A stretch of DNA of 64,000 nt, taken from Pyrenula massariospora. Taxonomy: Eukaryota > Ascomycota > Eurotiomycetes > Pyrenulales > Pyrenulaceae. The DNA lies in NCBI GenBank assembly GCA_021030905.1, contig JAGFMI010000005.1, positions 496,001-560,000 on the forward strand, given 5' to 3'. Under the pieces are notes generated by a model. The model saw only the letters and a program-made list of their open reading frames with translations, had not been told where the DNA came from and did no database searches. This document shows, piece after piece, positions 690-29,323 of this stretch. Every line of letters starts with the position of its first letter. Positions within the stretch are counted from its first letter, which is position 1. The translations under genes were made by a program, and so were the position numbers.

Positions 690-1791
690 CTAAGTACTAT
701 TCCTCCGCCCACAGATGCGTTCAAAGGTATCAACCGTATGCTTCCATACCAGCTCCCCTACACCGTCCTTCATGTATTCATCTAGTATTGCTCGGTTTCC
801 GGTAGGGTTTCCATTCCAGTCCAAAAGATAACCACCGCTCCCTTTGACACCATCACTCCCGGGTGCAGATGCGCTGTTCATAGCCCCCCTCGCCGAGTAT
901 ACCTCGCTTGTTGCCGCAAACAGATGTCTCTGTCCACTTTCTTCGATTGGGATGACCCATGGTCTCAACAGTACGTACGCTAAGTTCATGAGCGGACGCG
1001 AGAAGAAACCAAGTCCCTGCGAGATATTCGTGTGCACCCAGCCTGGAAACGCGTGCACAAACCCAACATTGGGGTGCTTGGTTGCAAGATAGCCAACCAT
1101 GAGACTGTTCATTGTCGTCGCATGGTCATGAGCGTGGCGCAGCGTGTAATTGCTCTCCTTCTTCAAGCTTAAATCGTCCAGGATCAGCTTACCTTCTTTG
1201 CCAGCGCTTAGGACAGACAGCACGCGGGCGGTCTGTCCACTCGCCGCAGCTGTCTGCAACAGAGGTAACAGATTCGTCACAAAACGCCAGCGGGAGTAAA
1301 AGTTGAGGGCGAGCTTCTTGTCGAGCCCTTCAGGAGTTTCATCGCGTCCGCGCGTACTTAGAAAGCCTGCACTGAGGCAGAGTACGTTGACCTTGCTCTC
1401 CTGAGCACAGATGTCGGTGCATACCTCGTCCACATTTTTCAGTATCGTAAAATCTCGAGCGATATGTCTGATAAAGCTGGATGGGTTGATCGAGCGCAGC
1501 TCAGCTGCCACCCTCGCCGCACGTTCATCCTGCCGTCCTATAATGTAGATCCTTGGCGAGACCGTGTGTCGTGCAAACTCTCTAGCAGTTGTCTCCCCGA
1601 TGCCACTGCTAGCGCCGACTGGGCGAAAGTCGTCATTACTAAGTCATTCCAGTAGATGAAAGAATAAGGAGGTGCAACAGGCTCGGTGAAAACAAACGCT
1701 TACCAAACACACCGACAAGCCCTGGACCGACATCTTTGAGTCTAGCGTTTGAAGTTCGGATGAAATCAAGAGAAAGTGGTTTCGGTGCCAT
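690..1791 (-). CDS. Short-chain dehydrogenase/reductase, cluster tailoring enzyme
   Basis: This is an NAD(P)-dependent oxidoreductase of the SDR superfamily. It has two exons, 1791-1704 and 1618-690, around an 85-bp GT..AG intron, giving about 338 residues. The start at 1791 is chosen because it puts the Rossmann glycine motif (VGASSGIG, about residues 30-37) across the splice in frame. An LSAG string stands where SDRs have NNAG, and a FPGWVHT string matches the usual PG motif. The expected catalytic YxxxK cannot be found at the normal spacing: the only YxxxK (YLATK) lies just 11 residues before the PG motif, too close to be the active site. The reaction is therefore uncertain. The family is known as divergent SDRs in fungal clusters. 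From position I infer tailoring of the polyketide. Confidence 0.85.
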
Positions 1792-2099
1792 CAGGAATAT
1801 AGAGCCTACAGCTTCAACTCGACCATGCGATTCAAGCAGAAATGTATAACGATGCTTTCATCTAAATGTGATGCAGGTCTGGTAGACAGTGTCATACCAG
1901 CTGCAGGACCTTCGGACTGAGGCCAGGCCGCTCCTCGCCGCTCCGACTCCGCGTAGGCCATGCTTGCTTATAGCGCAAGTTACTCTATTAAACCACAGAG
2001 ACTGTCGTGTAGATGTCGTTGGTGATATTATGTTTCTAGTTCTACATTTTCCCGTGAGACCCAATACATCTCAAGTAGGTGACGCCGCTGTCTAAACTA
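1792..2099. promoter_or_regulatory. Promoter region of the dehydrogenase gene
   Basis: This 308-bp gap separates the dehydrogenase start (minus strand) from the 3' end of the cupin gene, so it should hold the dehydrogenase promoter. I see no clear TATA box or paired regulator site. Two opposed 68-codon frames overlap here and look like chance. Confidence 0.4.
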
Positions 2100-2780
2100 T
2101 CAAGCGCTCGAATCCCAATAAGCTTTCAGGAGTTTTGGCTTCACCCCCTGCATCTTCCCAACAAGAGACAGACACCGTATTAGCGGCTCGAGAACAGCCC
2201 ACCGCTTCCCACAAGGCCGCACGTTAGCCATGACCACCATTGTACAACCCTGAAGCAGGCATTTTGGCTGCGCCTTGTCATCTAGCTTGCCGTCCCGGGC
2301 CAGCCCGCATAGGATGTATAACATCTGCTCGAATTCTACCCTCGCAGGACGAACCAGGACCTCGTACGAGATAGCGCGATCACTCAAGGGATTCGACCAC
2401 GCATGCGGTTCACGTGGACGAATTGTCGTCTCCTCGCCCGGCTGCATCACTCGCATCCCTTGCTTCTTCGAACCGAGATGAGCGCCCAGCGGGTCGATGG
2501 CCTTGATTGTCTCACTGAACTTGCGGCAGTAATGTCGGTTTGGTGGTGGAGAGGAGCCCGTCGTGTTCGGTTCAATAGTGAACTTGATGTGCGTGTATTC
2601 GCCGTTGGTCTCGGCACCGTATTTGAGGAACTCGGCATGGATGCGGGTCACCGGGTTATAGATGATGCGCTGCTTCTCATCTCGTACACCTGGTGGGAGT
2701 GTCCCGGTCTGCTTGGCAGGTGACTCTGTTGGCCCATCTGCACCCTTCGCAACCTTTTCCTTCTCCTGATCTTGTGCCAT
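2100..2780 (-). CDS. Cupin-fold protein, possible tailoring enzyme
   Basis: This is a single-exon gene of 226 residues. The central part (about residues 60-150) has the look of a small cupin beta-barrel: PNRHYCRKFSE, then a glycine turn, PGEETTIRP and a PHAWSN motif. In classical cupins the metal is held by HxH, E and H. Here the first motif reads H-Y-C, so the second histidine is cysteine, while the glutamate of FSE and the histidine of PHAW remain. The C-terminal 70 residues are helical-looking and basic. The N-terminal 35 residues are charged and probably disordered, with no signal peptide. It lies between a dehydrogenase and an MFS gene on the same strand, which suggests a role in the polyketide pathway as isomerase, cyclase or oxygenase. 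The exact reaction cannot be read from the sequence. Confidence 0.75.
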   Translation of the reverse strand: MAQDQEKEKVAKGADGPTESPAKQTGTLPPGVRDEKQRIIYNPVTRIHAEFLKYGAETNGEYTHIKFTIEPNTTGSSPPPNRHYCRKFSETIKAIDPLGAHLGSKKQGMRVMQPGEETTIRPREPHAWSNPLSDRAISYEVLVRPARVEFEQMLYILCGLARDGKLDDKAQPKCLLQGCTMVVMANVRPCGKRWAVLEPLIRCLSLVGKMQGVKPKLLKAYWDSSA

Positions 2781-5523: not shown

Positions 5524-8459
5524 GATTGGCCTTTCAACAGCTACAAATCTGGCTGTAGAGGAAACTCTTCCTCGCCATCTATTTTCAAACAATGGGCTTT
5601 CAACCTGGGGAGGACCTTAAGAGAACAAATTGGTGCGATAAGGGCGTGTAAGACGATACGAAGATAGATAGCTGGTGATTGAAGATCGAGGGTTGCGAGT
5701 GAAGAATCAGAGTTGATGCGATTGAAGGAAGGGTCTGAGACAACCAGCCGGCGCGGCGACATTGCCGTCCATCGTGCGAATTTCCCGAAAGCAGACGTAG
5801 ACGCACGAACGGGGAAGAGAGAAGAGTGGAAAAGGACGAGATCAATATGTCGGAGAGACGGTATTGAAATGAAGGCAAAGGGCGGGCCGATGGCCGACCA
5901 GTCAGTTCGAGGATGATGTGGAAATAAGGCTTGCTGCTTACAAGAAGGGCTAACAACAGTCATGCGGGATAGGGTGACTGAATTGAGAATGACGGCATTT
6001 AGTCGGTCAGAACAAAGCGTATCAGACTTTAAAAAAAACAAGATGTCTGCATTCCTGTTACTAATAGTGATTAGAATGTAAGTTTGCTAATGTTTCGGCA
6101 TCTTTGCAACAGGATTGTCGGGTGCGCCAATTTCCAGCCACGCAATAGAACATGTAGTAGCTGGATCTGGTTGGTGTTAAACAAAGTTTCTGACAGTCAT
6201 ATATACATGTTCGTCAGGGATACAACATGCGACTTTTGAGGGGGGCGAAGGCTGACACTTTAAAAGACACTCCTTTATCTTAAAGCCACGCACAATCTAT
6301 CCTCTTTCACGCCCCCGGCCGAGCTTTTAGCTTTTGACTTCGGGTCGATCCCGCTCGCGGCCGCTGCTCTTGTATTTGTGGCGCAAGCCACCATTCAGGA
6401 CGACCGTTACCGCTGCCGCAATATACACAAGGATCACGACGGCGGCTCGTACCCGCTGTAGTACGAATCGTAATCGGAAGCAAGGATTACCATGAGGGAT
6501 CGTACTCGCACGACTTCGCCGATGTATACGGTATCTGGGCACAATGTCGGAATTCAGGGCGTTGAATGGCCGATTTGGGTAATAGTTGGACGCCTCAGCA
6601 GAATTGTTGTCACGCTTACGCTGAGCATTTGGCGCAATTCAAAGACGCCGGAAAAAGCTCCATTGGTGCTACGTAATTGACAGGTGGTCCTCCAGCGCGG
6701 TGCCAGTTGTACCAAGACGACCGTTTGAAGGTCGGTTGTCTCCACCACGCCTCAAGCGTCTGCGACCTCATGATAACTAACAGACTAGAGGTGGGTGGTT
6801 CTTAACCATCCAAAAATAGGTCCTCTGCAGCTCCTTCAATGATTTCAAACGTCCAAAAGTAAGCTGAGATGAGATGTTCTAGATGTTACAACATATAGTG
6901 TCTGGCCGCTCCAACATAGAATCATTAGCCGGAACGGTATGGGAGCAGACGGTAGGTATATCTACGGAGCGGGAAAATCTTGCTATCAGCCCGCACTCCT
7001 CCGATACATCCTGTCAATCAATGAGTGGCTTTGCCCCTTACATATTGGTTGTTCTCACAGGTCGCTTCGGACCCCGACCAACGCAGTTTACCCATCAGAT
7101 GGAAGCGCCACGTGCGACTAACGTAAGCAGCCATGAGAAACCTGCATACTAACTATCCTGTGCCTTTGTGAGCGGTAGCGGTTTTACTAGCCCTGAGCCA
7201 ATGACTATAGGTGGAAGTCCTTACTCAACCGGAGCTTTTTTCTATTCGCTGTTGCAGAAGTTCTCTGATCCCCAGAGCCGTTTTCCTCAGAGCCGTTTTT
7301 CACCTGTGAGGTTTCTCGATGATTTCTCGTGAAAAATTGCTAGCCATTAGGTGGGAACGAAATCAATCTTTTTGGAATCCCTTGGAATACAGCTATCATC
7401 ATTGATAAATAGAGGCAGGTATTCGTGCCCTGAAAGGTGTCAAATAGGTGATCTTGAACGAGGGACCACTTTAAATCGGTTGATGTCCCGCTTCCTTCTC
7501 GGCCACCTCGCCGGCTCGGGTACGCCTCCAGCAAGCCGTATCTATCTGCGAGCGTTTAGCCATGAGCGATGGCGTATTTTGTCTCTACAGCCTCAGCCGG
7601 CACTAAGTAACGGGATGAGGGTGGATCCTTGCTCCCGCAAGAGCCTTTACCCCATAAACAGTGCCTGCAACGTCTCTTGAGCAACAGCATTTGCTGGATC
7701 AGGTTATAGGCCCATGAAGTCCCTGAATGAGCGACACACGGGTCACGACCTATGTCCGGCCCCTACCAGCGACCAATCATCTCTCAAGAAGTGAAGCCAT
7801 CGCGCAATCGCAAAGGTTTGTACACGAGTAGGAGTATTTCTTTCAATAGTTCTTATCGCTTCTGTCTGTCTGGGAAGTACGCACGGGTAAGAGCTGTATG
7901 AGTCCTTCTTGGACACGAACGGGGTGACATCGAACGTGAGGCTGCATCACACAGCCGCTTAGGACTCACTAGAGGCATGCTTCAGGCAGCCGCCCGTCTA
8001 TCTTACCTCGATAGGTAGACTTGTGCTGCACTTGAGATAATCTACTCACCCTCTCACTGCCATCGTATGCGCAAAGTTTATCGATCTTTTCCAAAGCTAC
8101 TTGGCCCCCAGAATATAAGCTTTACTGCACGCGACAATACGCGAGGCGCATCCACAACAGTCCATGCTGACCTCCACCCGCGTCCCCCACTCTAACGTCC
8201 TCCAGCCATCTTTTCTAAGGTGCTTGGAGGCAGCCGTCAAGAAGTCCTAAGACGGGAAACTCAAGCGAAGGCGGCCTGATACAACACAAGACCCTGCTAA
8301 AGCATCCCGCCTGCAATGAAACTGTTGTAACCCTATAAATGCATCAACCCTTCGGTAGCAATATTTTTATCACTTTCCCTGCGCGGTCTCCCACGTGGAT
8401 CTCCAGGGGAGACCTTTGACCCTACGGCTGCCGATCCCGACGGCCGTAAGCGGAATGCC
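5524..8459. other. 2.9-kb divergent gene-free region between exporter and regulator
   Basis: This stretch separates the divergent MFS (minus) and Zn2Cys6 (plus) genes and must carry both promoters. The first 500 bp beside the MFS gene contain a 118-codon minus-strand frame that looks like leader sequence. From 6.1 to 8.3 kb all frames are short and none resembles a known protein. A CACGTG core lies near 8392, about 70 bp before the regulator's start, and a TATAAA-like string is at about 8335. The size is unusual for a promoter. It may be remains of a lost gene, but I could not identify one. Confidence 0.45.
7273..7301. repeat. Two-copy 15-bp direct repeat
   Basis: The string CAGAGCCGTTTT occurs twice, starting at 7273 and 7288, separated by three bases. 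It lies in the gene-free region and its role is unknown; it may be a chance duplication. Confidence 0.5.
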
Positions 8460-10713
8460 GTGAAGCCTACTATGGCCCAGATCAGTTCATCCACCTCTCC
8501 ACTCTCATGGGACGAAGTAGATGTCAGCGCTTGGCTTAATGAGAACGGTGTCGCCGAAGAGCCTCTGGCGGCCCTCGAAGCAGCATATAGCGCCGCCGAA
8601 GAGCCTTTGACCGCCCTCAGGGAACAGCATATACCACAGAATACAGGAGGCTTTGGCATCAATACCACTCCGCCAACTTCAAAACCTAGACGGCTGGCGT
8701 GCCTCGCATGCCGACACAGGAAGGTTCGATGTAGCGGTGGAAGCACCGGCTGCCAACGATGTACCCGATTAGGCCATGAATGTGTCTATGATAAGGGCTG
8801 GAACTCTGCTTCAGATCCCAAGTCCCAGTCTTTCGAACAGATGAGGGCTCGGCTCGGTAAGTCGGCATGCATCGGCACAGAGTGTACTAGTAGCTAACGA
8901 TCTGTAGATCAGCTTGAGAAGCTCTTCTGCCAGCAGAATTCACGCAATTCACCGGTCCCTGCTCGTCCAGCAGGAAGCGAAGAAGCCATCGTGCACATGA
9001 CCCTATCTGAAAAGAGTAAAGAACATGATCCGTCACTCGATAAGAATGTCTTTCTATCCGCAGTCGCCGCCCTGGACTCAAACTACGGTCTTCAAAATGG
9101 CACCTCAACTTATTTAACTAGAACCTTGGGTGAACAAGATGTGACCGGAACTGAATCTAGCCCTGAGCTTGCAAATTTGGGTTCCATAACACCACCAATT
9201 AGTTCAGACCCTTCTAATCCGTTTTCTATGCAATTGCCTCATGTAGAAGGCGTTGCTTTAAGAAGGAAAATCTCTTACGGTGGGAGCTTAACCACCTCAC
9301 CGCCACTTTTAACACTACTACAAAGTGGCTGGCATGGTTTGTAAGTTAAGCTTATTCTGGTTGAAACCAACAAACTCACAATCCACAGTCACCAGAAATA
9401 CTTCGAAATTGTGCATCCATCCATACCCATACTGGATGAGAATCACTTCCTCACAAACACTGCGAAGGAGCCTGTCGACCCCTATTCCGACCTCACTGCG
9501 CTTTGTCTAGCTGTGCACATGCATGGGGCTATGGTAGCAGATCCACAATCCAAATTACACGTACACTATTACCAATGTGCGCGGCAACTTCTTGAGCGAC
9601 TAGAAACCGACAGATGCAAGATCGGACTCGCAGCAGTCCAAGCGTGGGTTCTCATTTCCATATACGAGTTCAGGCAGCTACTATTTTCAGAAGCTTGGAT
9701 AAGCTCTGGAAGAACTTCACGCCTAGCTCAAATGATAGGTTTGCATCGACTTGATTCTGATGCAACTCAGAGAATGGAAGTGGATTCTCCGCTAGCTCAG
9801 CACGGTGATAGCAACCAAAGTCGTCAAACCTTCGCATTTGTCTTCATCCTGGACCGGTTCACCAGTATTAGCACGGGTTTGCCCATGGCGTTAGTGGAGA
9901 AACAGGTACAGTGTCTCCGTGGTCAGAAGTATCCTTGCATTTGCGGGCGGCTAACTGTTTTTAGATCACTACTACGCTCCCGTCACCCGATGGAAGCTAT
10001 TCATATGGGACTATCTGCTCTTCTATCAGTACCGGTCGAAACACCAAAGAGATCCCGGAATTCGCTCACCTGTCACCGGTAGGAAAGATGGTCATAATCG
10101 CAGAAGTCTGTGCACGCGTATGCGAACATGCAAATACACCACTCAACCATGTCACATCAAGCTACATCACCTCCCACGAGTACTGGTTCGGCCACTATCA
10201 CTTCGACCAAGTCCTTTCATCTCTCGCTCAAACCATGTCCTCCGATGGGCTTCCATGCCGAGAAGAACCCATCTCCCAATTCATCACGATAAGCATTCAC
10301 GCCGCCGAGATCCATCTGCAGAAGGGCGCCATTGATCACGGCAAGAAAATCCCCAGCATGGAGGCGCTTGTGAAAGAATCAACGAGGAAATGTCTGGAGG
10401 CGGCATTGGAGATTGCAAATATTGTCCAGATCATGAAAATCACCAAATCGACTCCGGTAAGGGGCACGCTGTTTGTATCTTCCCCCCACAGTCCCGCTGA
10501 TGACCAGTATAGATCCACCCCTTCTTTCCTTGGTCAATCTATTGCGCTACGAAAGTCACGTCGTACTTTGTGTCCAAGGATCCGAATAATTTGGGGATTT
10601 TGGAGAGGCAGAATCTGCTTGTTGCCGGTTTGACGGCCGTGGGAGGCAGGGTAGATCGATTGGACGGCCCACAAAATTCACCTTTCACGGGAGTGACGCA
10701 GCGGATATGCTAA
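8460..10713 (+). CDS. Zn2Cys6 fungal transcription factor, likely cluster regulator
   Basis: This is a DNA-binding regulator of the Gal4 type, acting in the nucleus. It has five exons (8460-8856, 8908-9340, 9389-9905, 9965-10456, 10513-10713) with introns of 51, 48, 59 and 56 bp, giving about 679 residues; a second ATG at 8472 could equally be the start. The zinc cluster spans about residues 81-108 (C-x2-C-x6-C-x6-C-x2-C-x6-C, beginning CLACRHRKVRC) and is followed by a short heptad-like linker (DQLEKLF) suited to dimer formation. The middle region, with HPSIPILDENHF and a FILDRF motif near 460, matches the fungal-specific transcription factor domain. Before the zinc cluster there is an imperfect 14-residue tandem duplication (AEEPLAALEAAYSA / AEEPLTALREQ). 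Position between exporter and PKS suggests it controls this cluster. Confidence 0.93.
8553..8636 (+). repeat. Imperfect 42-bp tandem duplication in the regulator's first exon
   Basis: Two copies start with the identical string GCCGAAGAGCCT at 8553 and 8595. They encode the repeated AEEPL block ahead of the zinc cluster. The copies have diverged, so the duplication is not very recent. Confidence 0.6.
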
Positions 10714-10994: not shown

Positions 10995-12777
10995 TCACTC
11001 ATCAAGCGCGAAATCAAACTCCCTAAAAGCTTCCTTGAACGCCGTAGCGGCAGCTTCCTCCTCAGCGTCTGCCTGGATCACAGTCCGCCAGTCCAGTCGC
11101 TCATTTAGCTTTAGCAGGTTCGCCATAACCTCGCGCCCGAATTGGATGTTGAAGCTTTGCTCGGCGGGTATAGGCATGAACATGGATGATTCTTCGATAC
11201 CTGGATTGGATTCTACGCCATTGGTCGGTGTGATGGCGGCATCGGTTGAGGGAGACGGTGGCGCAGCGATCCAGATGCGGAAATAGTCTCCCCTCTCTGG
11301 CGAGATTTCCTCGTCAGGGCCGATGGCTTCAAAAGGTGGAAGATTCGAAGCCTCAGCTTTGACGCGGAAGGCGCCATCGATAAGACCCTTCGTGACGTAT
11401 GTGCCGGGAACGGGCATCCACTGCCACGCAAAATGGCGAACGCCACTGCGGCTAAGATCCCAACAGACGCTCCCGAGTTGATGCTCGTGCTGGCTATTGC
11501 TGAGATTGTGTACCATCGCTATCATGGCTTTTCGATAGCGACACATCTCAGTAAAGGTCTTCACTCGGACCTCAGGGTCAGGAATGGTGGATGCAGTGGA
11601 CGAGTGTGCGAACGGGATGATGAGCATGTGCCCTGGAAATTTGCTGTTGAGGGATGTGAATGTGGTCATCGTTGGGAGAGGACCGCGGGAGATGGTTAGA
11701 TAGGAGTCTTCGCCAATCGAGGTTACAAGATGCGTCTTTATGCTAGGGTTGGAAAGGCAAAAAAAACATGCTTCAGGGCCCGCAGGCGCAGGGCGAGGAC
11801 CGCGGCGTCTTCCATTCTTCTGGCGGCCGTCGAAGTGCGAATAGGAATCTCGTTCAATGTTATATGGGGCTCGGCGCTTTTGCGAGGGCGGAGCGAAAGG
11901 GGTCGCGGTTGTGCCAGGAGGTAAAGGGGTGGCGATTGTGGGGATTGACTCGGAAGGGTCGAGGCTGAAAGCATAATTGAATTTTACTCCTGCAGGATTT
12001 TTGTAGGAACCCAAACTCAGGAAGCGAGTTATCGGTCGGGATTCTGGACCTGCCTCGTTAGGGTAATGGAAGAATGGCTCCCTTTCGAAATAGGTTGATG
12101 GAGATGTGGTAAAATGGTAACGTGGTCTGAGGGTCGAGCAGAGAGTGGAGAGGCAGGCTTGCGAAGCTGGGATAGACTCAGGTGTGAATTTGTCCGCCTC
12201 CTTCGATCCAATAGTCACGGATTCAGGCCATTCACTAGTTAACAGAATGTCGCATGAATGAGCGCCATGTAGCACTCTAGTGTCGTTCTCCGTGAAGAAA
12301 GGCACGAAGCGAGATTGAGATTTTGTGACGGGTGGATCTTGCTGGACGTATGAGCCGCCGATATTAACTATCCGAACGCCCTCAGATGTCTTGAAGGTTG
12401 TCCTTCTCCCGAAGTAGCATAAATTGTGACACAATTGGTCGTCGTTCTGTTCTAGCTTCTCCAAAACTCGCTGCGGAAGAGAGCGTCCTCCAACTGTGAA
12501 GTAAGTCGGAAGTGGGACGGAAATTTCTCCATTAAGCAATGCCGTCAGTTCATTGTCATCTGAATCTGACACTTGCTCTCCGAAAAGATCTCCTAGAAGT
12601 ATAGCGAAAGAAAGATTGGACTTGGCTTGAATTTTTCCAAGTCTGTTGAAAGCGTCTTTGAGAGCTCCATTGACAGCACCTATGACAATACTAATCAATT
12701 GGTTAGCCGGAATATGAGATCAAGGTAATGAGGACTTGATGGTAGTCGTGAAGAGAAACCTACATTTTAGAAGCCAT
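10995..12777 (-). CDS. drn1: CWF19-like protein 1 / Drn1-like splicing factor
   Basis: Members of this family bind the lariat-debranching enzyme or late spliceosome and act in the nucleus. There are two exons, 12777-12764 (only 14 nt) and 12690-10995, around a 73-bp intron, giving 569 residues. The tiny first exon restores the conserved start MASKIIVIGAVNG. The N-terminal 230 residues resemble the calcineurin-like fold of CWF19L1 (LLGDLFGE, GGRSLP). A basic linker (about 275-305) leads to the CwfJ C-terminal domain 1, with CFFCLSNP, HLVTS and a HIT-like HFAWQWMPVP, and then domain 2 with GDYFRIWIAAP. The gene is a housekeeping gene lying inside the metabolite cluster, on the PKS strand, with its 3' end 281 bp from the regulator. 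Nothing in the sequence marks it as a pathway enzyme. Confidence 0.92.
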
Positions 12778-17000: not shown

Positions 17001-20000
17001 CCATAAGTGAGACGGAGAATAGTTTAGGATCGTCGTGGTCGCGGAAAGTCAAGTCGAGGCCGCTGAAGCCATTCGCTCTGAGTCGGCGATCCCATTCCAG
17101 CTCCGACATCCTTGGGCCGTACTTTCGACCATCATCCTCGCCTTCACGAGTTAGCATATGATCGTATCAAGTCAGGATTGGTAGGCTTCGCAGGACGGGG
17201 ATACGTACCATTCCACCATCCGCTCAAAGTACCGAAGATCATAGGAATACGAGCCAGTGTGCATGTAAGCTCTCCTAGAACAAGCACGCCCCCGCTAAAG
17301 ATAGTTAGAGAACTCGTTGCTCCCTAGAATGAGAGGGGAGACTTTACGGTTTCAGTAGACTCTTACAATTCTGTAAGCAGGCAGAAATAGAGCTAGTTGC
17401 GTGTAGTACATTGTTCGCAACTACCATGTCGTAGACACCGAGCTGCACGCCTTGCTTTGCCACATCCTGCTCAATATTGACAACCTTGTACTCAAGAAAC
17501 GACTCCCAGGTTTTGAAGTCCTCTGAAGCAGCTTCGAAAAAGCCACTACTGATATCGGTGAAAGTATAGGTATGTAGACGGCAGGATGTCTCGTCGCGGT
17601 TGCCGAGGGCTTCAAGAATAACCTTGGTCGTACCACCGGTACCAGCTCCAACTTCGAAGATTTTGAGTTCGGTTCGTTTGTGAGCCAGAGCCTGGACATA
17701 TCTTGCAAGAACAGGGCCCCATTTATCGGTCCCAATAGCATTACGGTAGTAATCAGTCAGGACGTCGTCTTCTCGCATGATCTGAAGAGGTTCAAGCTTC
17801 CCAAGGAAAATTTGTTCATAATTAGCTCCTAGTTTGACCATGAGCTTACCATCTACCGTTGTATCGGCAACACGGGCCAGCAATTCGTCCCCAAAAGAGT
17901 CTGTCGTGTCTAGCCAGTCGTGCTCCAGGCTCTGGCAATCAAGTTTCATCTGAAGAGCCCTGTCATATTGGTTCTTCATGTATTGATAGAAGAGATAATG
18001 GTGTGGAGCGAATTCACTAGCATCTTCTTCGCTGAAGCGCTTCAGAATGCGCTTGCACAAGATGAAAGAGGCTAATTCAAGCTCATAGACGACTTTGGAA
18101 TCAGCGTTCTGAATTATGTCTCCAAATCTTTCGAAGTAGGCCTGACTCTCGACTCTCTCGAGATGGTCAATATCAAGGTCCCAGACAGGATGGGCGCCTA
18201 ACTTTCGCAACGACTTTTGAATCGCTCCCTTCTCTGCTCCCTCGTCACCGGAGCCCATGGTCTCAAGCTCAATAATTCGACAGCCTTCGATCACGACTAG
18301 TGGTTCTTCCCAGTGTTTGGTCGAAGCAACCATGGTAGCAATTGACTCATTGAAGCCATAGGGTTGGGCTTTTGAATATCCGTAATATTTTGTGCCAGGT
18401 GTAGGGTCAAACTTCGAAGACTAGATGGAAGGTTAGCTGAAGGCAACAAGTCTCATTCATAAGGACCTACGATGTAGAAACTCTCGATAAACCTCGGAAT
18501 CTTCGCCTTTTCTAATGGTGTGTTAATTGGGGTAGACGAAGGGATCGTCATTTGGATGACGGAATCGAGACAAGCAGGATGTATGGTATGGGGATATTCA
18601 AATCCTTCTGGCATCCATTTCTTTGTGTCAGGGACTTCCAGAACACAGTGCGCTTCGTAATTGCCTGAATTAATAGCCGTGAGAGTTGTAAATGTGGGTC
18701 CCCATTGAAGGCCTACTTCACCCATCGTCGCATATATCTGTTTTGGATCTTCCACGGGCAAGTCTGCATTTACCAGTCGGTGATATTCAGACCTATGGTA
18801 TTTGATTGCGGCGGCCTTCTCGTCTGAAAAATCCTTGTTGGATTCTGTCTGATATCTTATTGCCACCAAACCAGAACAGTGCTGAGTCCAGACTCCTTGC
18901 GCAGTTCTGCAAGAAATCGTGAATTCTGTCCAGTGAGACGTTGGCAGACGTGTGCCCATTCGATAAGGCCTGCGCGCTGCTTAGTTCCATGACTCAATCA
19001 AAACAGAAAAAGAAAATAAAAAAGCAATAGCAACGTGAGTGAGCCTACCGGAATTGTAGCTTGGTTTCTACGGGGTCATCTGCAGGCACAATCATAGCCT
19101 GAAGCACAGCTATATCTCGAAGCCCGAAACCCTCAATCGCCATGGTCTTATCTGCAACCTGCTTTGCAGCCTCGATAACCATGACAATCATGCCAGAAAG
19201 TGGATAGAGAATCGAGCCTTGAACCTTGTGATGCTCCATCCAAGGCATTTCTTCAACACGGAGATAGTTTCTCCAAGCAGGCTCTTGACTAGTAGAGTAC
19301 TCGGAAAGAGCGCCTACCAAGTCAAGACGTGGAAGTTCTCGGTTGCGATAAGCCTTGCCGGCTGCTGACTCATACCAATAAGTCAGTTGTCTGTTCCACG
19401 CAAATGGAGGAAGATCAACCAATGCTGAAGTGTGAGAGCTGCCATCGATTCTATTCGCAGCGCTGACATGAGGGACTACTCCTTGGAGAATGAGTTTACC
19501 AATAGCGTCCAGTGAGCTCCTAACGGCATCGACACCCCGATATAGCATAGAGACATAGGGTATTTGGGCGCTTTTCCCTTCTTGAGCATCGAAGATTTGC
19601 TTCAAAGGTCCTTGGAGTGCCGAATGTGGGCCAACTTCGAGGAAGACGTAGAGATTGGTGTTCCTGGTAGTACGGCGCTTGCCACCTGAATATGACATTG
19701 CAGCTTGCACTGCCTGCGAAAATTTGACAGTCTTCAACATATTCGATATCCAGTAATGACTGTCCATAGCTGCTCCATCGATCAATTTTCCGGTGACGGA
19801 TGAGAACATCAGTGTGCCATTTCCAGAAACTGGCGCAGAAAGATCTCTCAGGGAATAGAGGTAGTCTTCTGCTACCTCCTTCATATACGCAGAGTGATAA
19901 GCATTCTTGACCAGAAGCTTTCTAGCAAAGACCTTGTCTGTTTCAAGCATGGAGAGGATCCGGTCGATACTTGAGACATCACCTGAAAGGGTAACGCTAG

Positions 20001-23000
20001 AAGGGCTGTTGATACAAGCGAGAGTAACAAAGCCATTATTAAGTCGTTCCAGATATGGTTGAACGGCAGTTTCTCCCAACCCAACGGCAAGCATGGCGCC
20101 ATCCGAAGAGACCAATGAAGATACTCTACCACGGTGATAAGCCACCTTCCAGCCATCTTCCCTACTTATTGCGCCTTTGGCATAAGCAGCTGCAATTTCT
20201 CCGCTTGAATGGCCGATGACCGTAGTTGGCTTGACACCAAAATCAACCAAAAGCTCAACCAAGGCTATTTGAATAGCGGTGCAGATAGGCTGGCTTCGAC
20301 TTGGCTCGTTAATTCTCGTTCCTTTAGCATCATGGGTCAATTCGGTGATTAAGTCCCAAGAACAACCCAAGCTTCTGAGATAGATAGCTGCCGCTTTCAG
20401 AGACTTTAGGAAAATTGGATAAGCAAGTAGTTCGAGCCCCATCGCATGCCATTGAGCCCCTTGCCCTGTAAATATGAATGCCAATAGAGGAACTTGGGAG
20501 GACCGAACAGCTTTATTGGGCGGCTTCTCTAACAACATTTTGAGCTCATCGATCGTTGAGGCTATACCGAAGGTTTTCCAAGGGAGACGACTACGCTTCT
20601 CGCTCAAAGTGAAAGCAAGCTGATCGAGAAAAATATCTTCTTCGGTGAAGGAAACTTCATGCTCAGCAAGATATCCTAGCATAGCTTTCGAGGAGCGAGT
20701 GACCCCACTTTGCTCGTTTGAAGACCAAACGAAGAGTCTAGGTAAACCCACTTGAGGGTGAGCGTCGTGGCCATGCGGTATGCCATTTCCGTTGGAGACA
20801 CCATTGCCGTTGGAGATATTGTTAACATTTGGAATGCTGTTGCCATTTGTCACGGCATGGCCATTAGATAAGTCGTCTATGGCAGTATGATGAAGATGGT
20901 GATCCATGATAGTTTTGTGGTAGCCTGTAATACTTCGAGACTCCAAATAATGGCCTGCATCATCTAGTATAGTGTGCGCATTCGTTCCTCCATATCCAAA
21001 ACTAAATCATGTTAACGGATTTCTTGAATTAGGGAGAGGGGGAATGAGGAATGGAATTAGAATGGATTTTCTGAACAAGACCCATTGTGGGTGATGACTT
21101 ACCTATTGACGCTAATTCGACGTAGCCCTTGTGCCGGCCAAGGCGAAAGGCTGGTTGGGATATCAACACCCCATTCTTTGAGATGGATGCGTGGGTTAAC
21201 CTTCTCAAACCACAAATTTGGGGGAACTAATCCTTGCTCGAGCATTTTCACCGCCTTGATCAAACCAGCGAGACCGCTTGCTCCTTCCAAATGACCAATG
21301 TTCGTCTTGACTGAACCAACAAGCAAGGGCTGGTCGCTGTGACGCATCTTGCCAAAAGTTGCCCCAATAGCTGACATTTCCAGAGGGTCTCCGGCGGCGG
21401 TACCGGTCTGTCGCAAGGAAGTGGCATTAGCATAAAATAAGCATGTAAACTCCAGCTGAGGATATGCCGAAGCAATCGAAATTATAGCATACCCCATGAG
21501 CTTCAAAGTAGTTCGTGTCCTTGAAGTCCAGACCAGCATTTTGATAGGTCGTACGAATCAATTCCTCCTGAGCTTCGGCAGAGGGTAGCGTGATACCAGG
21601 TGTCTTGCCATCTTGGTTCACACCTGTACCGCGTATCACAGCCCGAATAATGTCACCATTTTTGATGGCTTCAGCAAGCGGTTTCAAAATGACTACTGCT
21701 GTGCCTTCTCCTCGCGCGTATCCATTCGCCCGGTGATCAAACGAGTGACATTTGCTGTCTGGGCTAAGGAAGTTCAACGAAGTCATTCCACTAAGACAAC
21801 AAATCAGTGATCTATCCCTTTTAAAGCGCACACAAGTCTGTCCTGCTGCTCGCGTGTTCATAGCACTGCCTCACTTCCGCTTGGCGCTAGGTCTGTCAAA
21901 GGGACTTACATCTGCATCTCTGGCATCGTGATCACATTGGTTCCTCCAACAATGGCTTGTTTAGATTCTCCAGTCCTCAGGCTTTGACAAGCAAGATGTA
22001 ATGCCACCAGACTCGAAGAACAGGCGGTATCGAGACTCAAACTCGGCCCCTTCAAGTCGAAGAACCAAGATATCCTGTTACTGAACATCGCAGCCCCATT
22101 ACCTGTGCCTTCATAGCGAGGAATCCACTCTGGATCCCTAGATCGCATATTAGCATAATCACGAGTGAAGGATGCCATGTAGACTCCTGTTGAGGAGCCT
22201 AAAATATCCTCCATCCTGAGACCGGCTATTTGCTGTTAGTGAGAAACTTTAAAAAGCCATGATAATTCTCGAACCATTCTCCAAAGCTTCATATGCAACT
22301 TCGAGACCCATTCTCTGTTGCGGGTCCATAGCCTTCGCCTCGTTTGGGGTGATATTGAAGAATGGGGCATCGAATGCTCCAATATCTTGTTTCATATAAT
22401 GTCCCCCGCGGATATTCATAGTCCCAGAACGCTCCGCATGTGGATGATAGAAGGCATCTATGTTGAAACGAGTCTTGGGCACCTCTGTTCGCGCGCTAAT
22501 GCACAATTTTTAGTACAAATGATTACTAAGCTTGGATCAAAGGTAAAACAGAAGAAGAGAAGAAACTGAAAGAGAGAGGATTGGTGGAGAGGGCTGGACT
22601 AGGGATAATATTGAAGAATATGTTGAAAGATACATAAGGTGAATACCTTGGTCTTGTTCTGCAAGGGGTATAAGAAAAATAACTTACGTTCTTGCCTTGA
22701 TAATGAGATCCCACAGTTTCTCTGGATCAGATGCATCACCTGGGAAGCGGCCTGCCATTCCTATAATAGCGATTGGTATTGTTGCATCATCTTCGACAGA
22801 CGAGATATTCAATTCATTGTCAGGAGCGCCGGTCCCATTGGCAGAATGGTAATCGTCGCCATTGGCGACAAGATGTCCGTTTCCATTGGTGACGAGGTTT
22901 CCGTTCCCATTGGTGACAAGGTGTCCATTCCCATTGGCAGCAAGGTAGCCATTGCCATTAGCAGGGTGGTGACCATTGGTGCTTCTACCAAAATCGGACG

Positions 23001-23016
23001 AGTCAGAGGAAACCAT
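14069..23016 (-). CDS. Highly reducing polyketide synthase KS-AT-DH-MT-ER-KR-ACP
   Basis: This iterative type I enzyme builds a reduced, C-methylated polyketide from malonyl-CoA and SAM. Thirteen exons, 23016-22688, 22495-22275, 22225-21910, 21790-21493, 21407-21103, 21001-19049, 18969-18471, 18420-17348, 17294-17209, 17141-15376, 15326-15006, 14957-14786 and 14736-14069, join in frame into 2668 residues. The KS has Cys252 (DTACSSSL), His387 and His427. The AT has GQGAQW (669) and GHSSGE (Ser755). The DH has HxxxGxxxxP at His1081 and Asp1276 (LDSVIQ). The methyltransferase has EVGAGTGG at 1563. The ER has [10 protein letters not shown] at 2094. The KR has GGLGGLGR (2303) and YNAGN (Tyr2444). 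The ACP has GVDSL with Ser2615. All catalytic motifs are intact. There is no thioesterase, reductase or condensation domain. The start at 23016 has a good ACCATGG context, though the frame stays open to 23166. Asn-Gly repeats flank the KS. Confidence 0.96.
20770..20860 (-). repeat. Asn-Gly-coding repeat in the PKS KS-AT linker
   Basis: An 18-bp-period, imperfect repeat encodes runs such as SNGNGV and SNGNGI between the KS and AT domains, near residues 534-566. It is low-complexity linker sequence of the same flavour as the one before the KS. Confidence 0.65.
22865..22960 (-). repeat. Four-copy 24-bp minisatellite coding the PKS N-terminal NGNG run
   Basis: Four successive 24-bp units encode the octapeptides [24 protein letters not shown] and NGNGHLVA (about residues 21-52) ahead of the KS domain. 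Copies differ by a few bases. Such tracts can change copy number by slippage while keeping frame. Confidence 0.8.
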
Positions 23017-23461
23017 GGTAGTGGTCGTGGTTGAGCACAACAAGGTGACGTTAACCTTAGGATGATACTTAGCAAGATGGGCTTCAGACTTTCTATCGGG
23101 TATCCATGGGTAGGCATCTCTTAGCTTTGAAGTGGCTTTCCTGTCTAATGAGCTATAGATAGTCATCGCCTACATCCTAAGTTGGTCGTCTCTGCCGTTC
23201 GGAGCGGCGAAAGCTCCCCGCCATCTTGGTCTTTTGATTCTGAAGATTCATGAGGCAGCCCATGTCAGCACGGCAACTCGCCACCTCTCCTAAGTTTCGG
23301 CGAGCATCCAGGGCTCCATACCGTCAGAAGACGGATCGATAGACCGCCCGTCCCGGAGTGGATAGTGGAACAGTTGCCAAAGCCCAACGTGGATACCAAG
23401 CCACACCGAGAGTACCTTGAACTCCACAGAAGGTTACGGCAAACATAGATGCCAAGGTTTG

Positions 23462-23511
23462 TTCACGTGACTGGTTGTGAAATAGATCCTGGCAGGTACC
23501 AGTCACGTGAA
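23462..23511. promoter_or_regulatory. Perfect 14-bp inverted repeat with TCACGTGA cores
   Basis: The arms TTCACGTGACTGGT (23462-23475) and ACCAGTCACGTGAA (23498-23511) are exact reverse complements 22 bp apart. Each contains the 8-bp palindrome TCACGTGA, a classic bHLH/bZIP-type E-box, with flanking bases also conserved. It lies about 450 bp upstream of the PKS start and about 760 bp upstream of the hydrolase start. The symmetry suggests an operator for a dimeric regulator; which one is not shown. Confidence 0.7.
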
Positions 23512-23968: not shown

Positions 23969-23980
23969 GCGGGTCCGGGC
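23969..23980. repeat. GC-rich 12-mer shared with 28499-28510
   Basis: GCGGGTCCGGGC occurs here and exactly at 28499-28510, in intergenic GC-rich patches on either side of the hydrolase and P450 genes. It may be a remnant of a dispersed repeat. Confidence 0.5.
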
Positions 23981-24269
23981 CGCAGTCCGGCTATCTTTTT
24001 CGTATTGATATTGCTCTCATATTCCATTCCGGGCCGCGCAAGATCTAGCTTATCGTTCTAAACTAAGTCTTGGCTGTAAGGTATGCGCGTTCTTTAGGTG
24101 GGGAAAGAATGACCCTAGCGGATTCCTCAAACGGCAGATAGTCGGTCTGGAGTGACAGTATTCTTAGACGTCAACAACTCAGAGATTTTATCTTTAACCT
24201 TTGAATCTTTTGCTCCGCTATTCAACATACTTAGCTCTGTCCATTCGATTTCTGGACAAATTGCCCGAC

Positions 24270-25200
24270 ATGAGGTTTCTTTGTCTCCACGGTCATGGCA
24301 CGAACTCGACCGTTTTAGAAGCTCAATTAAGCCCGATTCGGGCTCTTCTTCCAGCAGATTGGCAATTTGAGTTTCTTGATGGAGAAATGGAGGTTCCACC
24401 AGCAAGTGGTAAGCTCGAAGGAGAAACGCATCGTTGATTTGACGTTGACTTGTCAAGGTATCGATGCCATTTTTCCAGGCCGTAAGTTTTATTCAACAGT
24501 TCAGAATATGAATGTCTTGGTAACAATTCCAGCGTTTCTTTGCTATCATGGCGAACCGATTCCCGAGGATGTTCAGGCCGCATACGACCTGGTCATGGAT
24601 GTTGTTCATGAAGAAGGGCCATTTGACGGAATCCTTGGGTTTTCGCAAGGGGCTGCCATTGGAGGAACGATTATGCTCACCGAGGCTCTCAGGAACCCTG
24701 GGAAACAGCCATTCAAGATGGGTGTATTCCTGAGCAGCACAATGCCATTCGACTTTGGATCCGGCATTCTTCGGCTAAAGGATGATGGGGTGAATGGATT
24801 GATGGCGACTCATCTCGACGACAATTTCCGAGAATTCAATTCCGAGAAGGGCAAAGTCAACTGGATGACCGATTGCAGGTCGAAGGGCGTTATTGATGAA
24901 TTTCAGGCTCGACGTCAGTCATATCAGCATCTCCGAAATGGGAGTGTTGAAGTTGACGTGCTCTTACGTTACAATCCGACCACACACGCGCAAAGGCTCC
25001 GTCTGCCTACCGTCCACGTGATTGGCACAAAGGATGATTACGCGGATCATGGAAGGGATCTGTACGGGATGTGTGATGCTCGTCAGGCAACTCTCATCAG
25101 TCATGACGGAGGGCATCAGCTGCCTAGGCATACAATATCCGTGGCAAAGATTGCCGACGCTATCATGAGAGCCGTTGAACAGGTGCGATGCCAATCATAG
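24270..25200 (+). CDS. FSH1-type serine hydrolase, candidate polyketide release enzyme
   Basis: This is an alpha/beta-hydrolase of the FSH1/ovarian-cancer-gene-2-like family, 276 residues, probably cytosolic. It has three exons (24270-24408, 24458-24481, 24533-25200) with introns of 49 and 51 bp. The start at 24270 gives the family's usual opening MRFLCLHGHG, with the oxyanion-loop HGHGTN. The nucleophile is Ser92 in LGFSQGAA. GTKDDYADHG supplies the likely acid and SHDGGHQLPR the histidine. The second exon is only 24 nt and completes the FPGPF motif. It diverges from the PKS across a shared promoter region. Family members in fungal clusters hydrolyse or transfer acyl chains from PKS proteins. 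Because this PKS lacks a release domain, that is the natural role here, but it is inference. Confidence 0.93.
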
Positions 25201-26053: not shown

Positions 26054-28019
26054 ATGGATAAAATAGAAGGGCACATCGAAAGGCAAAATAGCGCACATCA
26101 TTCCCTAAGCCGTCTCCTGCCCCTTCTTACCATTTCAAATTTCCTAGCATTCGTGGCTTTGTTCCTAGTTGTCTATAATGTAGGCTCTGCTATCTACAAT
26201 ATCACTTTCCACCCACTCGCCAAGATTCCTGGGCCTAAGCTCGCCGGTGCCACCAAATTGTACCAAACTTTCTGGTCTGTTTACCAAGGTAAAAGCATAT
26301 ATTACTGCAAGATTGAAGATTTGCATCAAATATATGGCGAGTTTGGACTCAATGGACGTCCCAGATCTTTTCTAACTAAGCACAGGGCCAATTGTTCGCA
26401 TTACACCGTCCGAGGTCTCCTTGTATGATCCAGATGACTACGAGAAGATATACTTTATTGGCACCAAGTACTACAAGAGCGCTGAGCATTATGGACCCTT
26501 CGGCGCTCCAACTGGAATGTTTACCGCGGTCGATAATTCGCTCCATGCAAGAAGAAGAGCGCCGATGAATCCGTTCTTCTCAAAAAAGGCGGTGCTAAAA
26601 GTCGAGAATGTGGTCCAGGAAAAAGTCAAGACACTTTGCGAGAGACTCGAGACCGAACTCAGCGCTCATCAAGTTGCACCTTTACATCACATGTTCAATG
26701 CACTCAGCATTGATGTCGCGTCTGATTACGTCTTTAGCCGCAGCTTCGATTTCCTTTATACCCCAACATTCGCAAGAGAGTTCACAGTAAGTCTCTAATT
26801 TTTTTTGGGTACCATTATGAATCATCGAAGTTTGTTTTCAATCGCGATTTGATGCGATACTTCGAAACATTTTTGAATGGTCTCACGCTCCGTGAAAAAC
26901 GAAAAGGTTTCCCCAAACACTGACTGAGAACGAAGTCCATGATCCGTGATGTTCTACGAGCCTTCTGGATCATGGTCTTGTCACCTCTCGTCCGCGCAGT
27001 ACTCATGGGGTTACCTCATTTTATTACAGATATCCACCCCTCCATCAAAGGCTATCATCAACTTTTCAATGTAAGCTTAGTTTCCAAAACCGAAAAAAAG
27101 CAAAACCCTCTAACAAGTACAAGGATACGCATAAGTTGGTTTTGAGGGTGATTAATGAAGTTGACTCTGGCAAAACACCTATTCAACGACTCTCAATATT
27201 CCACACTCTCTTGGATCCGCCGATAACAGACGAGTACAAGAAACCAAAGGATTATAAGAAACCATCATCCATGCAGCTCACCGATGATGGAGTGAGCATC
27301 CTGGTTGCTGCGGCATTCACTACCGGAAACGCCATGACACTGTCAGCATACCATGTGCTGAATGACAAAGCGGTCTATTCTCAACTTCGGGACGAGCTTT
27401 TGCGCCTTTTTCCGGTGAAACCGGAGAAGCTCGATTATCAGTCCGTGGAAAAGCTTCCATATTTAGTAAGTCATTGATCAAGCACAAAATCGCGCGTGTT
27501 GGTGCTAAGAAAACTTAGACCGGGTGCGTCAAGGAAGGGCTTAGACTCTCATATGGCGTCATCGGCCGTCTTCCGAGGGTGGTACCTGCTGGTGGTGCTG
27601 TGTTTAATGGATATACTCTTCCTGCAGGATGCAAGGTCGGAATGTCTAGCTGGATGATGCATCGGCACCCAAGAATTTGGCCACAGCCTGAAAAGTTCGA
27701 TCCAACACGCTGGACTGATCCTGCAGAAGCGAAGCGACTTAACAAATACATGGTCGCGTTTGGAAAGGACAGTCGCCAATGTATCGGTATGAAGTAAGTC
27801 TCCAAGATTTAAAGTATGGCTTCCGGAATGGTACTGATTTCAACTTCCAGCCTCGCTATGTGTGAGCTGTATGTAATGATTGCGACTCTGGTCCTTAGGT
27901 TTTCTGACCTCGAAGTCTATGGAATGAGTGATAACGACCTTGTCTACGACGATCATTTCTCTGGGTACCAGCAGAGGCAGTGCCATGAGCTCCAAGTCAG
28001 ACGGGCACTCAGTGCTTGA
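26054..28019 (+). CDS. Cytochrome P450 monooxygenase, polyketide tailoring
   Basis: This is a membrane-anchored heme oxygenase of about 542 residues. Exons are 26054-26336, 26386-26786, 26831-26879, 26961-27070, 27124-27465, 27519-27793 and 27851-28019. The N-terminus has one hydrophobic anchor (about 20-50) followed by HPLAKIPGPK. The K-helix is EGLRLS, the PERF region is FDPTRW and the heme loop is FGKDSRQCIG with Cys483. The I-helix region carries AAAFTTGNAMT where AGxDT is usual, so the threonine is present but the acid is not obvious. Intron 1 appears to be GC..AG (GCGAGT donor, CTAAC branch), the only choice that keeps YGPIVRI in frame. The 49-nt third exon and its 81-bp following intron are less certain. 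It resembles trichodiene-oxygenase-like fungal P450s. Oxidation of the PKS product is inferred from position. Confidence 0.9.
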
Positions 28020-28777
28020 GAAAGTGTTCAATTCAAAGACACTCTTTCGAATGCGCGGAGAGTATCATCTGCACATGGACTAAACTGGGAGGAGATAGTG
28101 AGCAAACCAAAAGAACGATCGAACGCCATGAAAGTAGTCTTAACAGATGGTATTATTTCACGCTTGAATCCGTATACAAAGTGAGAGTTCAGTATAAGCA
28201 ATCTTTTCAGAGTACAATTCAAAGGCTTTCAGAATCGCTAAGGCTCGAACAAACCTGTCATTAATTTAAAGGCGTAAAGTATATTGTTCCAGGCCGTCAG
28301 GCCAAGTCAGCGAGGCCATGCATGGCGATGAGAAGTCGGTGGAAATCGAAAGCCGCTTGCTCCTTTCAAGGCTTGACTGGATCCATACCAAAAACCACTG
28401 AATCCTTACCTGTGTTGCTTTCGATAGTCCTGGATGCAGCGGCCAAAGAGCGGGCTGGCCCCGTTGCCTAACGGCGCCCTTCGGCCTTAGTACCCGGCGC
28501 GGGTCCGGGCTGGGCTAAGAACGTCTTCGCCTCCTTCGAAGACAAAGATCAAGCCGCTGAAGATGAGGCCCATAGAGCATTTTCCTAAAACTTGTCCGAT
28601 GGGGGAAAAGCTGCGTATATACCTGTGGTCCAGCCCTTCAGCCTAACAGTCTTGGCTGAACCCGCCAAGTAAAGTATTCCTACCCCCCCAAAAGATCCCA
28701 CTCGTGATACAGCGTAAGCTCTTAAGGATGCCTTGTAAGTCTGATCATTATTTCATTGTGCCCTTGCATATTTTCAG
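28020..28777. other. Intergenic between P450 and DUF7053 gene
   Basis: This 758-bp stretch has no supported gene. A GC-rich patch at about 28440-28520 contains both shared words, GGCGCCCTTCGGCC at 28473 and GCGGGTCCGGGC at 28499. A splice acceptor (TTTTCAG) ends at 28777, so a short first exon of the DUF7053 gene may lie in the last few hundred bases. Confidence 0.45.
28473..28510. repeat. GC-rich patch carrying both dispersed words
   Basis: It contains exact second copies of the 14-mer at 13082 and the 12-mer at 23969, 12 bp apart. This links those two patches to one repeat type, although the flanks do not align well by eye. Confidence 0.5.
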
Positions 28778-29323
28778 GTGGAAAGACTAAAGACTGGACT
28801 TGCTGTTGAAATAGTCTTTGCGACATCCAGCAAGCTGATCCATCGATTCTCACTTCCACCGACGGCATCCTTTTCTTCGGCCATTGCCATCCTTCGCGAC
28901 CATGACTGGCTTATCCGTCTCGACCCCGAGCTCGTTTCATACACGCTCTCCGATGCTTCCAACTTCAACAACCCAGCAGCAGAGAAGGAAGAAATCTCAA
29001 GGACGAAAATATACAAAGTCATAGATCACATGAGCGGGATTCCCAAATCAATCTATGACGCAAAAGTCAACATTGAGATACAGATCACCGACGTGGACGA
29101 TGGAGTTGACTTCCTGGTTCATGCACCGATGGGAGTGGTACAGAAGGCAAAGTGGCGGGTTGTTAATGACGTTGACAAGCCAGGGGTGTGGCAGCTCAGT
29201 ATCGAGACAGAGATAACATGCTCGAGGCTGTTGATGGGAATTGTAAAGGGCAAAGGTGAGACGAATGTGCCTATTATGGGGCAGACTTTGATAGAGTTAT
29301 TGGAAAAGGACAACCGGGACTAA
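28778..29323 (+). CDS. DUF7053 (SRPBCC-like) protein, 5' end unresolved
   Basis: This is a small protein of about 181 residues matching the fungal DUF7053 family, thought to have a START/SRPBCC-like fold. Family marks are the opening FATSSKLIHRFSLPP, then DHDWLIRLDPEL, a KIYKVIDHM strand, the paired-aspartate DVDDGVDFLVHAP turn, and the C-terminal CSRLLMGIVKG helix. No ATG begins this frame: it opens directly behind a good TTTTCAG acceptor, so one short upstream exon should supply the start. The nearest ATG (28728, ATGCCTT before GTAAGT) is in the wrong phase. Either the first exon is elsewhere or the gene is decayed at its front. Its function is unknown; family members are seen in fungal metabolite clusters. 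It ends 222 bp before utp20. Confidence 0.7.
   Translation: MERLKTGLAVEIVFATSSKLIHRFSLPPTASFSSAIAILRDHDWLIRLDPELVSYTLSDASNFNNPAAEKEEISRTKIYKVIDHMSGIPKSIYDAKVNIEIQITDVDDGVDFLVHAPMGVVQKAKWRVVNDVDKPGVWQLSIETEITCSRLLMGIVKGKGETNVPIMGQTLIELLEKDNRD

What the first reader, a model, noticed from the sequence alone, without database searches (positions are those of the whole stretch)
690..29323. Highly reducing PKS cluster with cupin, atypical SDR, FSH1 hydrolase, P450 and DUF7053 protein
Eight genes with pathway-type functions sit together: core synthase, release hydrolase, three candidate tailoring enzymes, exporter, regulator and a small SRPBCC-like protein. All PKS catalytic motifs are intact, including the C-methyltransferase and the enoylreductase. 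I do not recognise the combination as a named cluster, so the product may be new.
Basis: partly seen in the sequence, partly recalled or inferred. Interest (0 to 1): 0.75.

Follow-up and report, generated by a model that had tools for sequence, protein, structure and literature searches.

The report
Ordinary uncharacterised fungal reducing polyketide cluster
A fungal genome stretch carries an intact set of genes that look fit to make, release, modify and export one unknown reduced polyketide; it is a typical uncharacterised cluster, interrupted by a housekeeping gene, in which two of the three candidate modifying enzymes have altered active sites.

Summary
The core is a 2668-residue highly reducing PKS (KS-AT-DH-CMeT-ER-KR-ACP) with its catalytic motifs in place and no thioesterase domain. 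Beside it lie an FSH1 hydrolase, a P450, a DUF7053 protein, a Zn2Cys6 regulator, an MFS exporter, an SDR-like and a cupin-like protein.

Corrections. (1) A ninth gene, a CwfJ/Cwf19-like (DRN1-type) RNA-processing gene at 10995-12777, lies inside the interval and splits the set into PKS-FSH1-P450-DUF7053 and regulator-exporter-cupin-SDR. (2) "Cupin" has no direct Pfam, NCBIfam or PDB sequence match; one bacterial bridge protein supports it, and the metal motif H-x-H is absent. (3) The SDR has His and Thr where the catalytic Tyr and Lys should be.

The right edge is firm (UTP20); the left edge is open, because the window ends. CGG repeats in cluster promoters hint weakly at shared regulation. 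No fungal genomes or MIBiG were available, so "unnamed cluster, new product" stays untested. Most likely a new member of a well-known kind.

The parts
690..1791 (-). SDR-like protein, 338 aa, exons 1704-1791 and 690-1618; cofactor motif VGASSGIG kept, catalytic Tyr/Lys positions are His/Thr
   Evidence: (adh_short 2.6e-11)
2100..2780 (-). Cupin-like protein, 226 aa, one exon; no H-x-H metal motif (reads NRHYCRKFSE there), third His (PHAW) kept
   Evidence: no direct family match; bridge to a Cupin_2 protein in L083
3604..5523 (-). MFS exporter, 586 aa, 4 exons
   Evidence: MFS_1 5.4e-46, TRI12 1.4e-13
5524..8471 (.). 2.95 kb divergent promoter region between exporter and regulator, no gene found
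   Evidence: best gene-finder score 6.7; CGG repeats
8472..10713 (+). Zn2Cys6 regulator, 675 aa, 5 exons (3' end of the model less certain)
   Evidence: Zn_clus 1.3e-8, Fungal_trans 1.4e-17
10995..12777 (-). CwfJ/Cwf19-like (DRN1-type) RNA-processing gene, 569 aa; housekeeping by family, not counted as part of the pathway, splits the set
   Evidence: CwfJ_C_1 2.4e-17, CwfJ_C_2 4.6e-12
14069..23016 (-). Highly reducing PKS, 2668 aa, 13 exons, KS-AT-DH-CMeT-ER-KR-ACP, no thioesterase domain (an in-frame ATG at 23166 is an alternative start)
   Evidence: alternative start
24270..25200 (+). FSH1 serine hydrolase, 276 aa, 3 exons; proposed release enzyme
   Evidence: (FSH1 1.2e-30)
26054..28019 (+). 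Cytochrome P450, 537 aa, 6 exons; heme motif FGKDSRQCIG
   Evidence: (p450 1e-55)
28728..29323 (+). DUF7053 protein, 171 aa, 2 exons (7-base first exon uncertain)
   Evidence: DUF7053 1.6e-24
29546..37372 (+). UTP20, housekeeping gene that bounds the set on the right (not part of it)
   Evidence: UTP20_N 1.9e-161

Best explanation
An ordinary, intact fungal biosynthetic cluster for one reduced, C-methylated, linear polyketide. The PKS builds the chain iteratively and reduces it with its own enoylreductase. The free-standing FSH1 hydrolase cuts the finished acid off the carrier protein, as LovG does for lovastatin. The P450 then oxidises the product, the MFS protein exports it and the Zn2Cys6 protein switches the genes on. 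The SDR-like, cupin-like and DUF7053 proteins act late, probably by non-redox or accessory chemistry (isomerisation, cyclisation or product binding), since the first two lack parts of their usual active sites. Shown: gene content, open frames, PKS motifs, the altered residues. Inferred: the release step, the order of steps, co-regulation, and membership of the left-hand four genes.
For: Domain order of the PKS and motifs, with LovB as the best PDB sequence match. The ACP match ends at residue 2651 of 2668, so there is no release domain, and a free hydrolase stands next door and divergent. The same logic is described in passages I read: LovG, the product-releasing thioesterase of lovastatin (PMC7870829); Fsl2 of fusarielin, whose loss abolished production (PMC6274466); an FSH-domain trans-thioesterase proposed for rasfonin (PMC10290801); an FSH1 protein in the fusapyrone cluster (PMC10512364). 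Right flank by Pfam: UTP20, DNL zinc finger, cullin, AP endonuclease, SLD5, a rhodanese-domain protein, DNA polymerase phi, pyroglutamyl peptidase (8 of 10 frames scanned matched). CGG direct repeats with 7 or with 8 bases between occur in 6 of 6 cluster promoter regions; 1 of 200 shuffled sets had any form in all six; in flanking intergenic regions 4 of 11 and 2 of 11.
Against: A CwfJ-type housekeeping gene lies between the two halves. The CGG test was post hoc over 75 motif forms, the cluster promoters are richer in CGG overall (31.2 against 23.1 per kb), and no single extended motif emerged: spacing 2 has more sites (13) but only in 5 of 6 regions, the 8-mer CGGAGCGG is at 5 places, 2 of them outside the set, CGGMNCGG is in excess in the whole window (25, mean of shuffles 12.1) with 13 of the 25 outside the six regions, and few 12-mers are shared by two promoters (no control was computed for these). 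The passages read also say that an FSH hydrolase of the fusarin cluster was not essential (PMC10512364). No expression or co-conservation data.
Confidence: 0.72

Rival explanations
1. Only the right-hand block (PKS, FSH1, P450, DUF7053) is the cluster. Regulator, exporter, cupin-like and SDR-like genes left of the CwfJ gene belong to another locus that runs off the window edge.
For: A CwfJ-type housekeeping gene lies between the blocks; the left block reaches the window edge; a 2.95 kb stretch without a recognisable gene lies between exporter and regulator.
Against: A regulator, an exporter and two tailoring-type genes are what a PKS cluster usually carries (general knowledge), and the right block has no regulator or exporter; CGG repeats in all six promoter regions, weakly.
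Confidence: 0.19
2. It is a salicylaldehyde or epoxyquinoid type cluster, in which dehydrogenases and a cupin convert an HR-PKS chain into an aromatic aldehyde or a relative.
For: HR-PKS, cupin, a Rossmann-fold dehydrogenase and P450s occur together in the amm cluster (PMC9430172 passages); two abstracts in the listing concern salicylaldehyde and epoxyquinoid pathways in papers that mention a cupin.
Against: The PKS here has CMeT and ER domains and a release hydrolase beside it. The single SDR lacks the catalytic Tyr and Lys. No prenyltransferase and no flavin oxidase family among the nine products scanned.
Confidence: 0.04
3. The cluster is decaying: SDR and cupin are degenerate leftovers and the pathway is silent or truncated.
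For: Altered active-site positions in both; Asp for the recalled Gly in the P450 heme motif.
Against: All nine frames are open with plausible introns, PKS motifs are in place, no 1 kb piece of the window passed my RIP thresholds, and third-position GC is within the range of the neighbours.
Confidence: 0.05

Closest known systems
Lovastatin nonaketide synthase LovB with LovG (passages of PMC7870829; LovB sequence match 7cpx)
   Same: Iterative HR-PKS with KS, MAT, DH, CMeT, KR, ACP and a separate releasing thioesterase
   Different: LovB's own ER is inactive and it ends in a CON domain; here ER families match and the chain ends after the ACP
Fusarielin cluster FSL1-FSL7 (abstract and passages of PMC6274466)
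   Same: HR-PKS, trans-thioesterase, P450, regulator
   Different: FSL1 has an inactive ER and needs a trans-acting ER; an epimerase (FSL3); the word cupin does not occur in the main text
Fusapyrone cluster FPY1-FPY7 (passages of PMC10512364)
   Same: PKS with FSH1 protein, MFS, dehydrogenase and P450
   Different: Has a putative C-glycosyltransferase; no cupin or DUF7053 in the passages read; gene order not compared
Rasfonin cluster rsf (passages of PMC10290801)
   Same: FSH-domain trans-thioesterase, MFS, P450s beside HR-PKS
   Different: More than one HR-PKS, three P450s and an O-acyltransferase; the words cupin and SDR do not occur in the main text
Fusamarin PKS8 cluster (passages of PMC10947347)
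   Same: HR-PKS, alpha/beta-hydrolase proposed for off-loading, Zn2Cys6 regulator
   Different: Trans-acting ER; four genes; the words P450, cupin and SDR do not occur in the main text

Membership tests
Fungal highly reducing PKS | KS-AT-DH-(CMeT)-ER-KR-ACP in one chain | tested here: met
   Pfam matches in that order over residues 81-2651
Fungal highly reducing PKS | Catalytic motifs of each domain present | tested here: met
   Recognised by eye in the model and located: [96 protein letters not shown]; the meaning of the motifs is recalled, not from a call
Fungal highly reducing PKS | Makes a reduced polyketide | not testable with these tools
   needs expression
LovG-type trans-acting release hydrolase | FSH1 family with GxSxG, Asp and His | tested here: met
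   PF03959 1.2e-30; GFSQG, DDYADH, GGHQ present; which Asp and His are catalytic is inferred
LovG-type trans-acting release hydrolase | Releases the chain from its own PKS | not testable with these tools
   assay needed
Classical SDR | Glycine-rich cofactor motif | tested here: met
   VGASSGIG aligned with TGANSGIG
Classical SDR | Catalytic YxxxK | tested here: not met
   His and Thr at the columns where four of five bacterial relatives have Tyr and Lys, in two alignment modes; the only YxxxK in the protein, residue 206, lies elsewhere
Cupin | Sequence match to a cupin family | tested here: inconclusive
   No direct match. Bridge: 25.9% over 174 aa, 49.7 bits to an ORF of L083; 100 shuffles against that ORF reach at most 23.1 bits; the ORF matches Cupin_2 at 8.4e-12. 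The other four ORFs fetched gave only 17.3 to 26.9 bits
Cupin | Four metal ligands (H-x-H, Glu, His; recalled) | tested here: not met
   No H-x-H in the protein. BLASTP puts Cys at the second His, with first His and Glu kept; MAFFT, local and global, puts Asn at the first His and Phe at the Glu; the third His is kept
Cytochrome P450 | p450 domain with heme Cys, ExxR and I-helix Thr | tested here: met
   FGKDSRQCIG, KEGLR, AAFTTGN. Asp replaces the Gly of the recalled FxxGxRxCxG consensus
DUF7053 | Match to PF23155 | tested here: met
   1.6e-24 over profile positions 5-169 of 171; SRPBCC fold not established
One co-regulated cluster | Shared regulator motif or co-expression | tested here: inconclusive
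   motif hints; no expression data
amm-type meroterpenoid cluster | Prenyltransferase and FAD-linked oxidoreductase with cupin | tested here: not met
   neither family among the nine products scanned; amm gene list from PMC9430172 passages

The most novel reading that the evidence does not exclude
The SDR-like protein without Tyr/Lys, the cupin-like protein without H-x-H and the DUF7053 protein form a non-redox tailoring set (isomerase, cyclase or pericyclase) acting on a released HR-PKS acid, which would give DUF7053 a function.
Probability: 0.1. Interest if true: 0.6.

Novelty: new member of a known kind. Interest (0 to 1): 0.28.

Why it matters
If the product is made, it would be one more uncharacterised reduced polyketide with a compact, intact pathway suited to heterologous expression. 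The parts worth a specialist's time are the DUF7053 protein, a family named in no paper of the searched library, and the SDR-like and cupin-like proteins with altered active sites: a knock-out or expression series would show whether such proteins are catalysts, binders or relics.

Tried and rejected
Whole-genome search of the window's own genome: none is held. Relatives in viral contigs: none for the PKS KS region or the cupin. Cupin in bacterial genome contigs: no relative by the pattern scan; 1 of 20 genomes at E 0.009 over residues 138-215, where I recognised no cupin by eye among the six ORFs of at least 120 aa listed for that locus; 1 of 399 genomes at E 5.3e-4 through a stretch with six stops, not used. 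The bait search matched 5 of 148 genomes; of the five ORFs only L083 gave a clear score with the window protein (49.7 bits; the others 26.9, 21.2, 17.7 and 17.3), and Pfam was run on two of the five. PHROGs: one match at E 0.18, ignored. Single-sequence structure predictions of the cupin-like and DUF7053 proteins: mean pLDDT 41.2 and 41.4, so no fold search was made. A first gene finder with hexamer scores over-split the PKS and was replaced, then corrected by eye at splice sites. Rejected: an 84-base intron between CMeT and ER (the frame is open through it) and a spurious 67-base exon in the KS region. No tRNA or Rfam match and no RIP signal by my thresholds. Codon GC3: 0.49-0.63 for the eight genes, 0.53 for the CwfJ-type gene, 0.48-0.70 for six flanking frames, so no sign of foreign origin. 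A self-resistance role of the CwfJ-type gene was considered and set aside: no second copy could be looked for. The confidence of the two-block rival was lowered from 0.22 to 0.19 only so that the four readings sum to 1; no fact behind it changed.
Full report
What is there. I built spliced gene models across the interval with a small gene finder trained on long open frames of the window and corrected the splice sites by eye. All nine models have a start, a stop and no internal stop; their introns run GT..AG. In order: SDR-like (-), cupin-like (-), MFS exporter (-), Zn2Cys6 regulator (+), CwfJ-type gene (-), highly reducing PKS (-), FSH1 hydrolase (+), P450 (+), DUF7053 (+). Pfam confirms eight of the nine; the cupin-like protein has no match, even at E 10. 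Six stretches without a model, 1-690 included, gave gene-finder scores of 0.8 to 6.7 over both strands, against 11.3 to 56.8 for the finder's own models at five accepted genes scored in the same call, so I found no further gene.

The synthase. The PKS is 2668 residues in 13 exons. Pfam matches run KS (81-455), AT (665-996), DH (1051-1316), methyltransferase (from 1545), enoylreductase (1981-2273), KR (2297-2473), ACP (2579-2651). I recognised fourteen catalytic or signature motifs by eye in the model and located them; their meaning is recalled. The first models lost part of the methyltransferase and of the KS through wrong introns; reading the three frames showed the missing stretches ([55 protein letters not shown]) to be there. 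LovB is the best PDB sequence match. The chain ends 17 residues after the ACP match, so release must come from elsewhere.

Release and tailoring. The FSH1 protein next door, divergent from the PKS, has GFSQG, an Asp stretch and a His stretch. In passages that I read, free-standing thioesterases release the chain in lovastatin and fusarielin and are proposed to do so in rasfonin and fusamarin, while one FSH hydrolase of the fusarin cluster was dispensable. So release by FSH1 is likely, not shown. The P450 keeps the heme Cys, ExxR and the I-helix Thr, with Asp where the recalled consensus has Gly.

Two altered enzymes. Aligned with five bacterial relatives, the SDR-like protein has His and Thr where four of the five have the Tyr and Lys of YxxSK; the fifth, L092, has His and Val. 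Two alignment modes agree, and the cofactor motif is kept. The cupin-like protein has no direct family match in Pfam, NCBIfam or PDB sequences. I used a bait to find bacterial proteins of the suspected kind; 5 of 148 genomes matched it. One ORF, in L083, matches the window protein at 25.9% over 174 residues with 49.7 bits (E-values there are for five sequences only), against at most 23.1 bits for 100 shuffles tested on that ORF, and matches Cupin_2 at 8.4e-12. The other four ORFs gave 17.3 to 26.9 bits, near noise, so the cupin label hangs on one bridge. The protein has no H-x-H. BLASTP aligns its NRHYCRKFSE so that the first His and the Glu are kept and the second His is Cys; MAFFT shifts it by two, giving Asn for the first His and Phe for the Glu; the third His is kept in both. 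DUF7053 matches its family nearly end to end; the fold could not be predicted, and no paper in the searched library holds the word.

One cluster or two blocks. The gene at 10995-12777 carries CwfJ_C_1 and CwfJ_C_2 and is a housekeeping RNA-processing gene by family. It separates the regulator-exporter-cupin-SDR block from the PKS-FSH1-P450-DUF7053 block. The right edge is firm: UTP20 and then further conserved cellular genes; of ten flanking frames scanned, eight had a Pfam match and two had none. The left edge is open because the window ends. I searched the six cluster promoter regions for CGG pairs in three orientations and 25 spacings. Direct repeats with spacing 7 and with spacing 8 each occur in 6 of 6 regions (10 sites each); in 1 of 200 shuffled sets did any form reach all six. 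In 11 flanking intergenic regions, bounded by eye, the CwfJ and UTP20 ones included, they occur in 4 and 2. Against this: it is post hoc, the cluster regions are richer in CGG (31.2 against 23.1 per kb), spacing 2 has more sites in fewer regions (13 in 5 of 6), CGGMNCGG is in excess in the whole window (25, none of 100 shuffles) with 12 of the 25 in the six regions, and the longer shared words were not tested against a control. I count it as a weak hint.

Comparison. The logic is that of known HR-PKS pathways with a trans-acting hydrolase. None of the clusters whose passages I read (amm, fusapyrone, rasfonin, fusarielin, fusamarin) shows this gene set in those passages. Third-position GC and RIP indices give no sign of transfer or decay.

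Verdict. A real, intact and otherwise ordinary uncharacterised HR-PKS cluster, with a missed housekeeping gene inside it and two tailoring-type proteins with altered active sites. Interest 0.28; new member of a known kind.

Noticed in passing
10995-12777 (-): A CwfJ/Cwf19-like housekeeping gene lies inside the claimed cluster; whether it is the only copy in the genome could not be checked.
   Followed up: partly
22833-22978: Tandem repeats of a 24-base unit near the PKS 5' end encode an Asn-Gly-rich stretch; a second Asn-Gly-rich stretch lies between KS and AT.
   Followed up: no
5524-8471: A 2.95 kb region between the divergent exporter and regulator genes holds no recognisable gene and no RIP signal by my thresholds.
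   Followed up: partly
57685-59502 (-): A 605-residue single-exon open frame among conserved cellular genes has no Pfam match at E 0.001.
   Followed up: no
L092: A bacterial relative of the SDR-like protein also lacks YxxxK, with His at the Tyr column and Val at the Lys column, so the altered site may mark an old subgroup and not decay.
   Followed up: no
26054-28019 (+): The P450 heme-binding motif reads FGKDSRQCIG, with Asp in place of the usual Gly (consensus recalled).
   Followed up: no
whole window: CGGMNCGG occurs 25 times, against a mean of 12.1 in shuffles and none of 100 shuffles reaching 25; 13 of the 25 lie outside the six cluster promoter regions.
   Followed up: no
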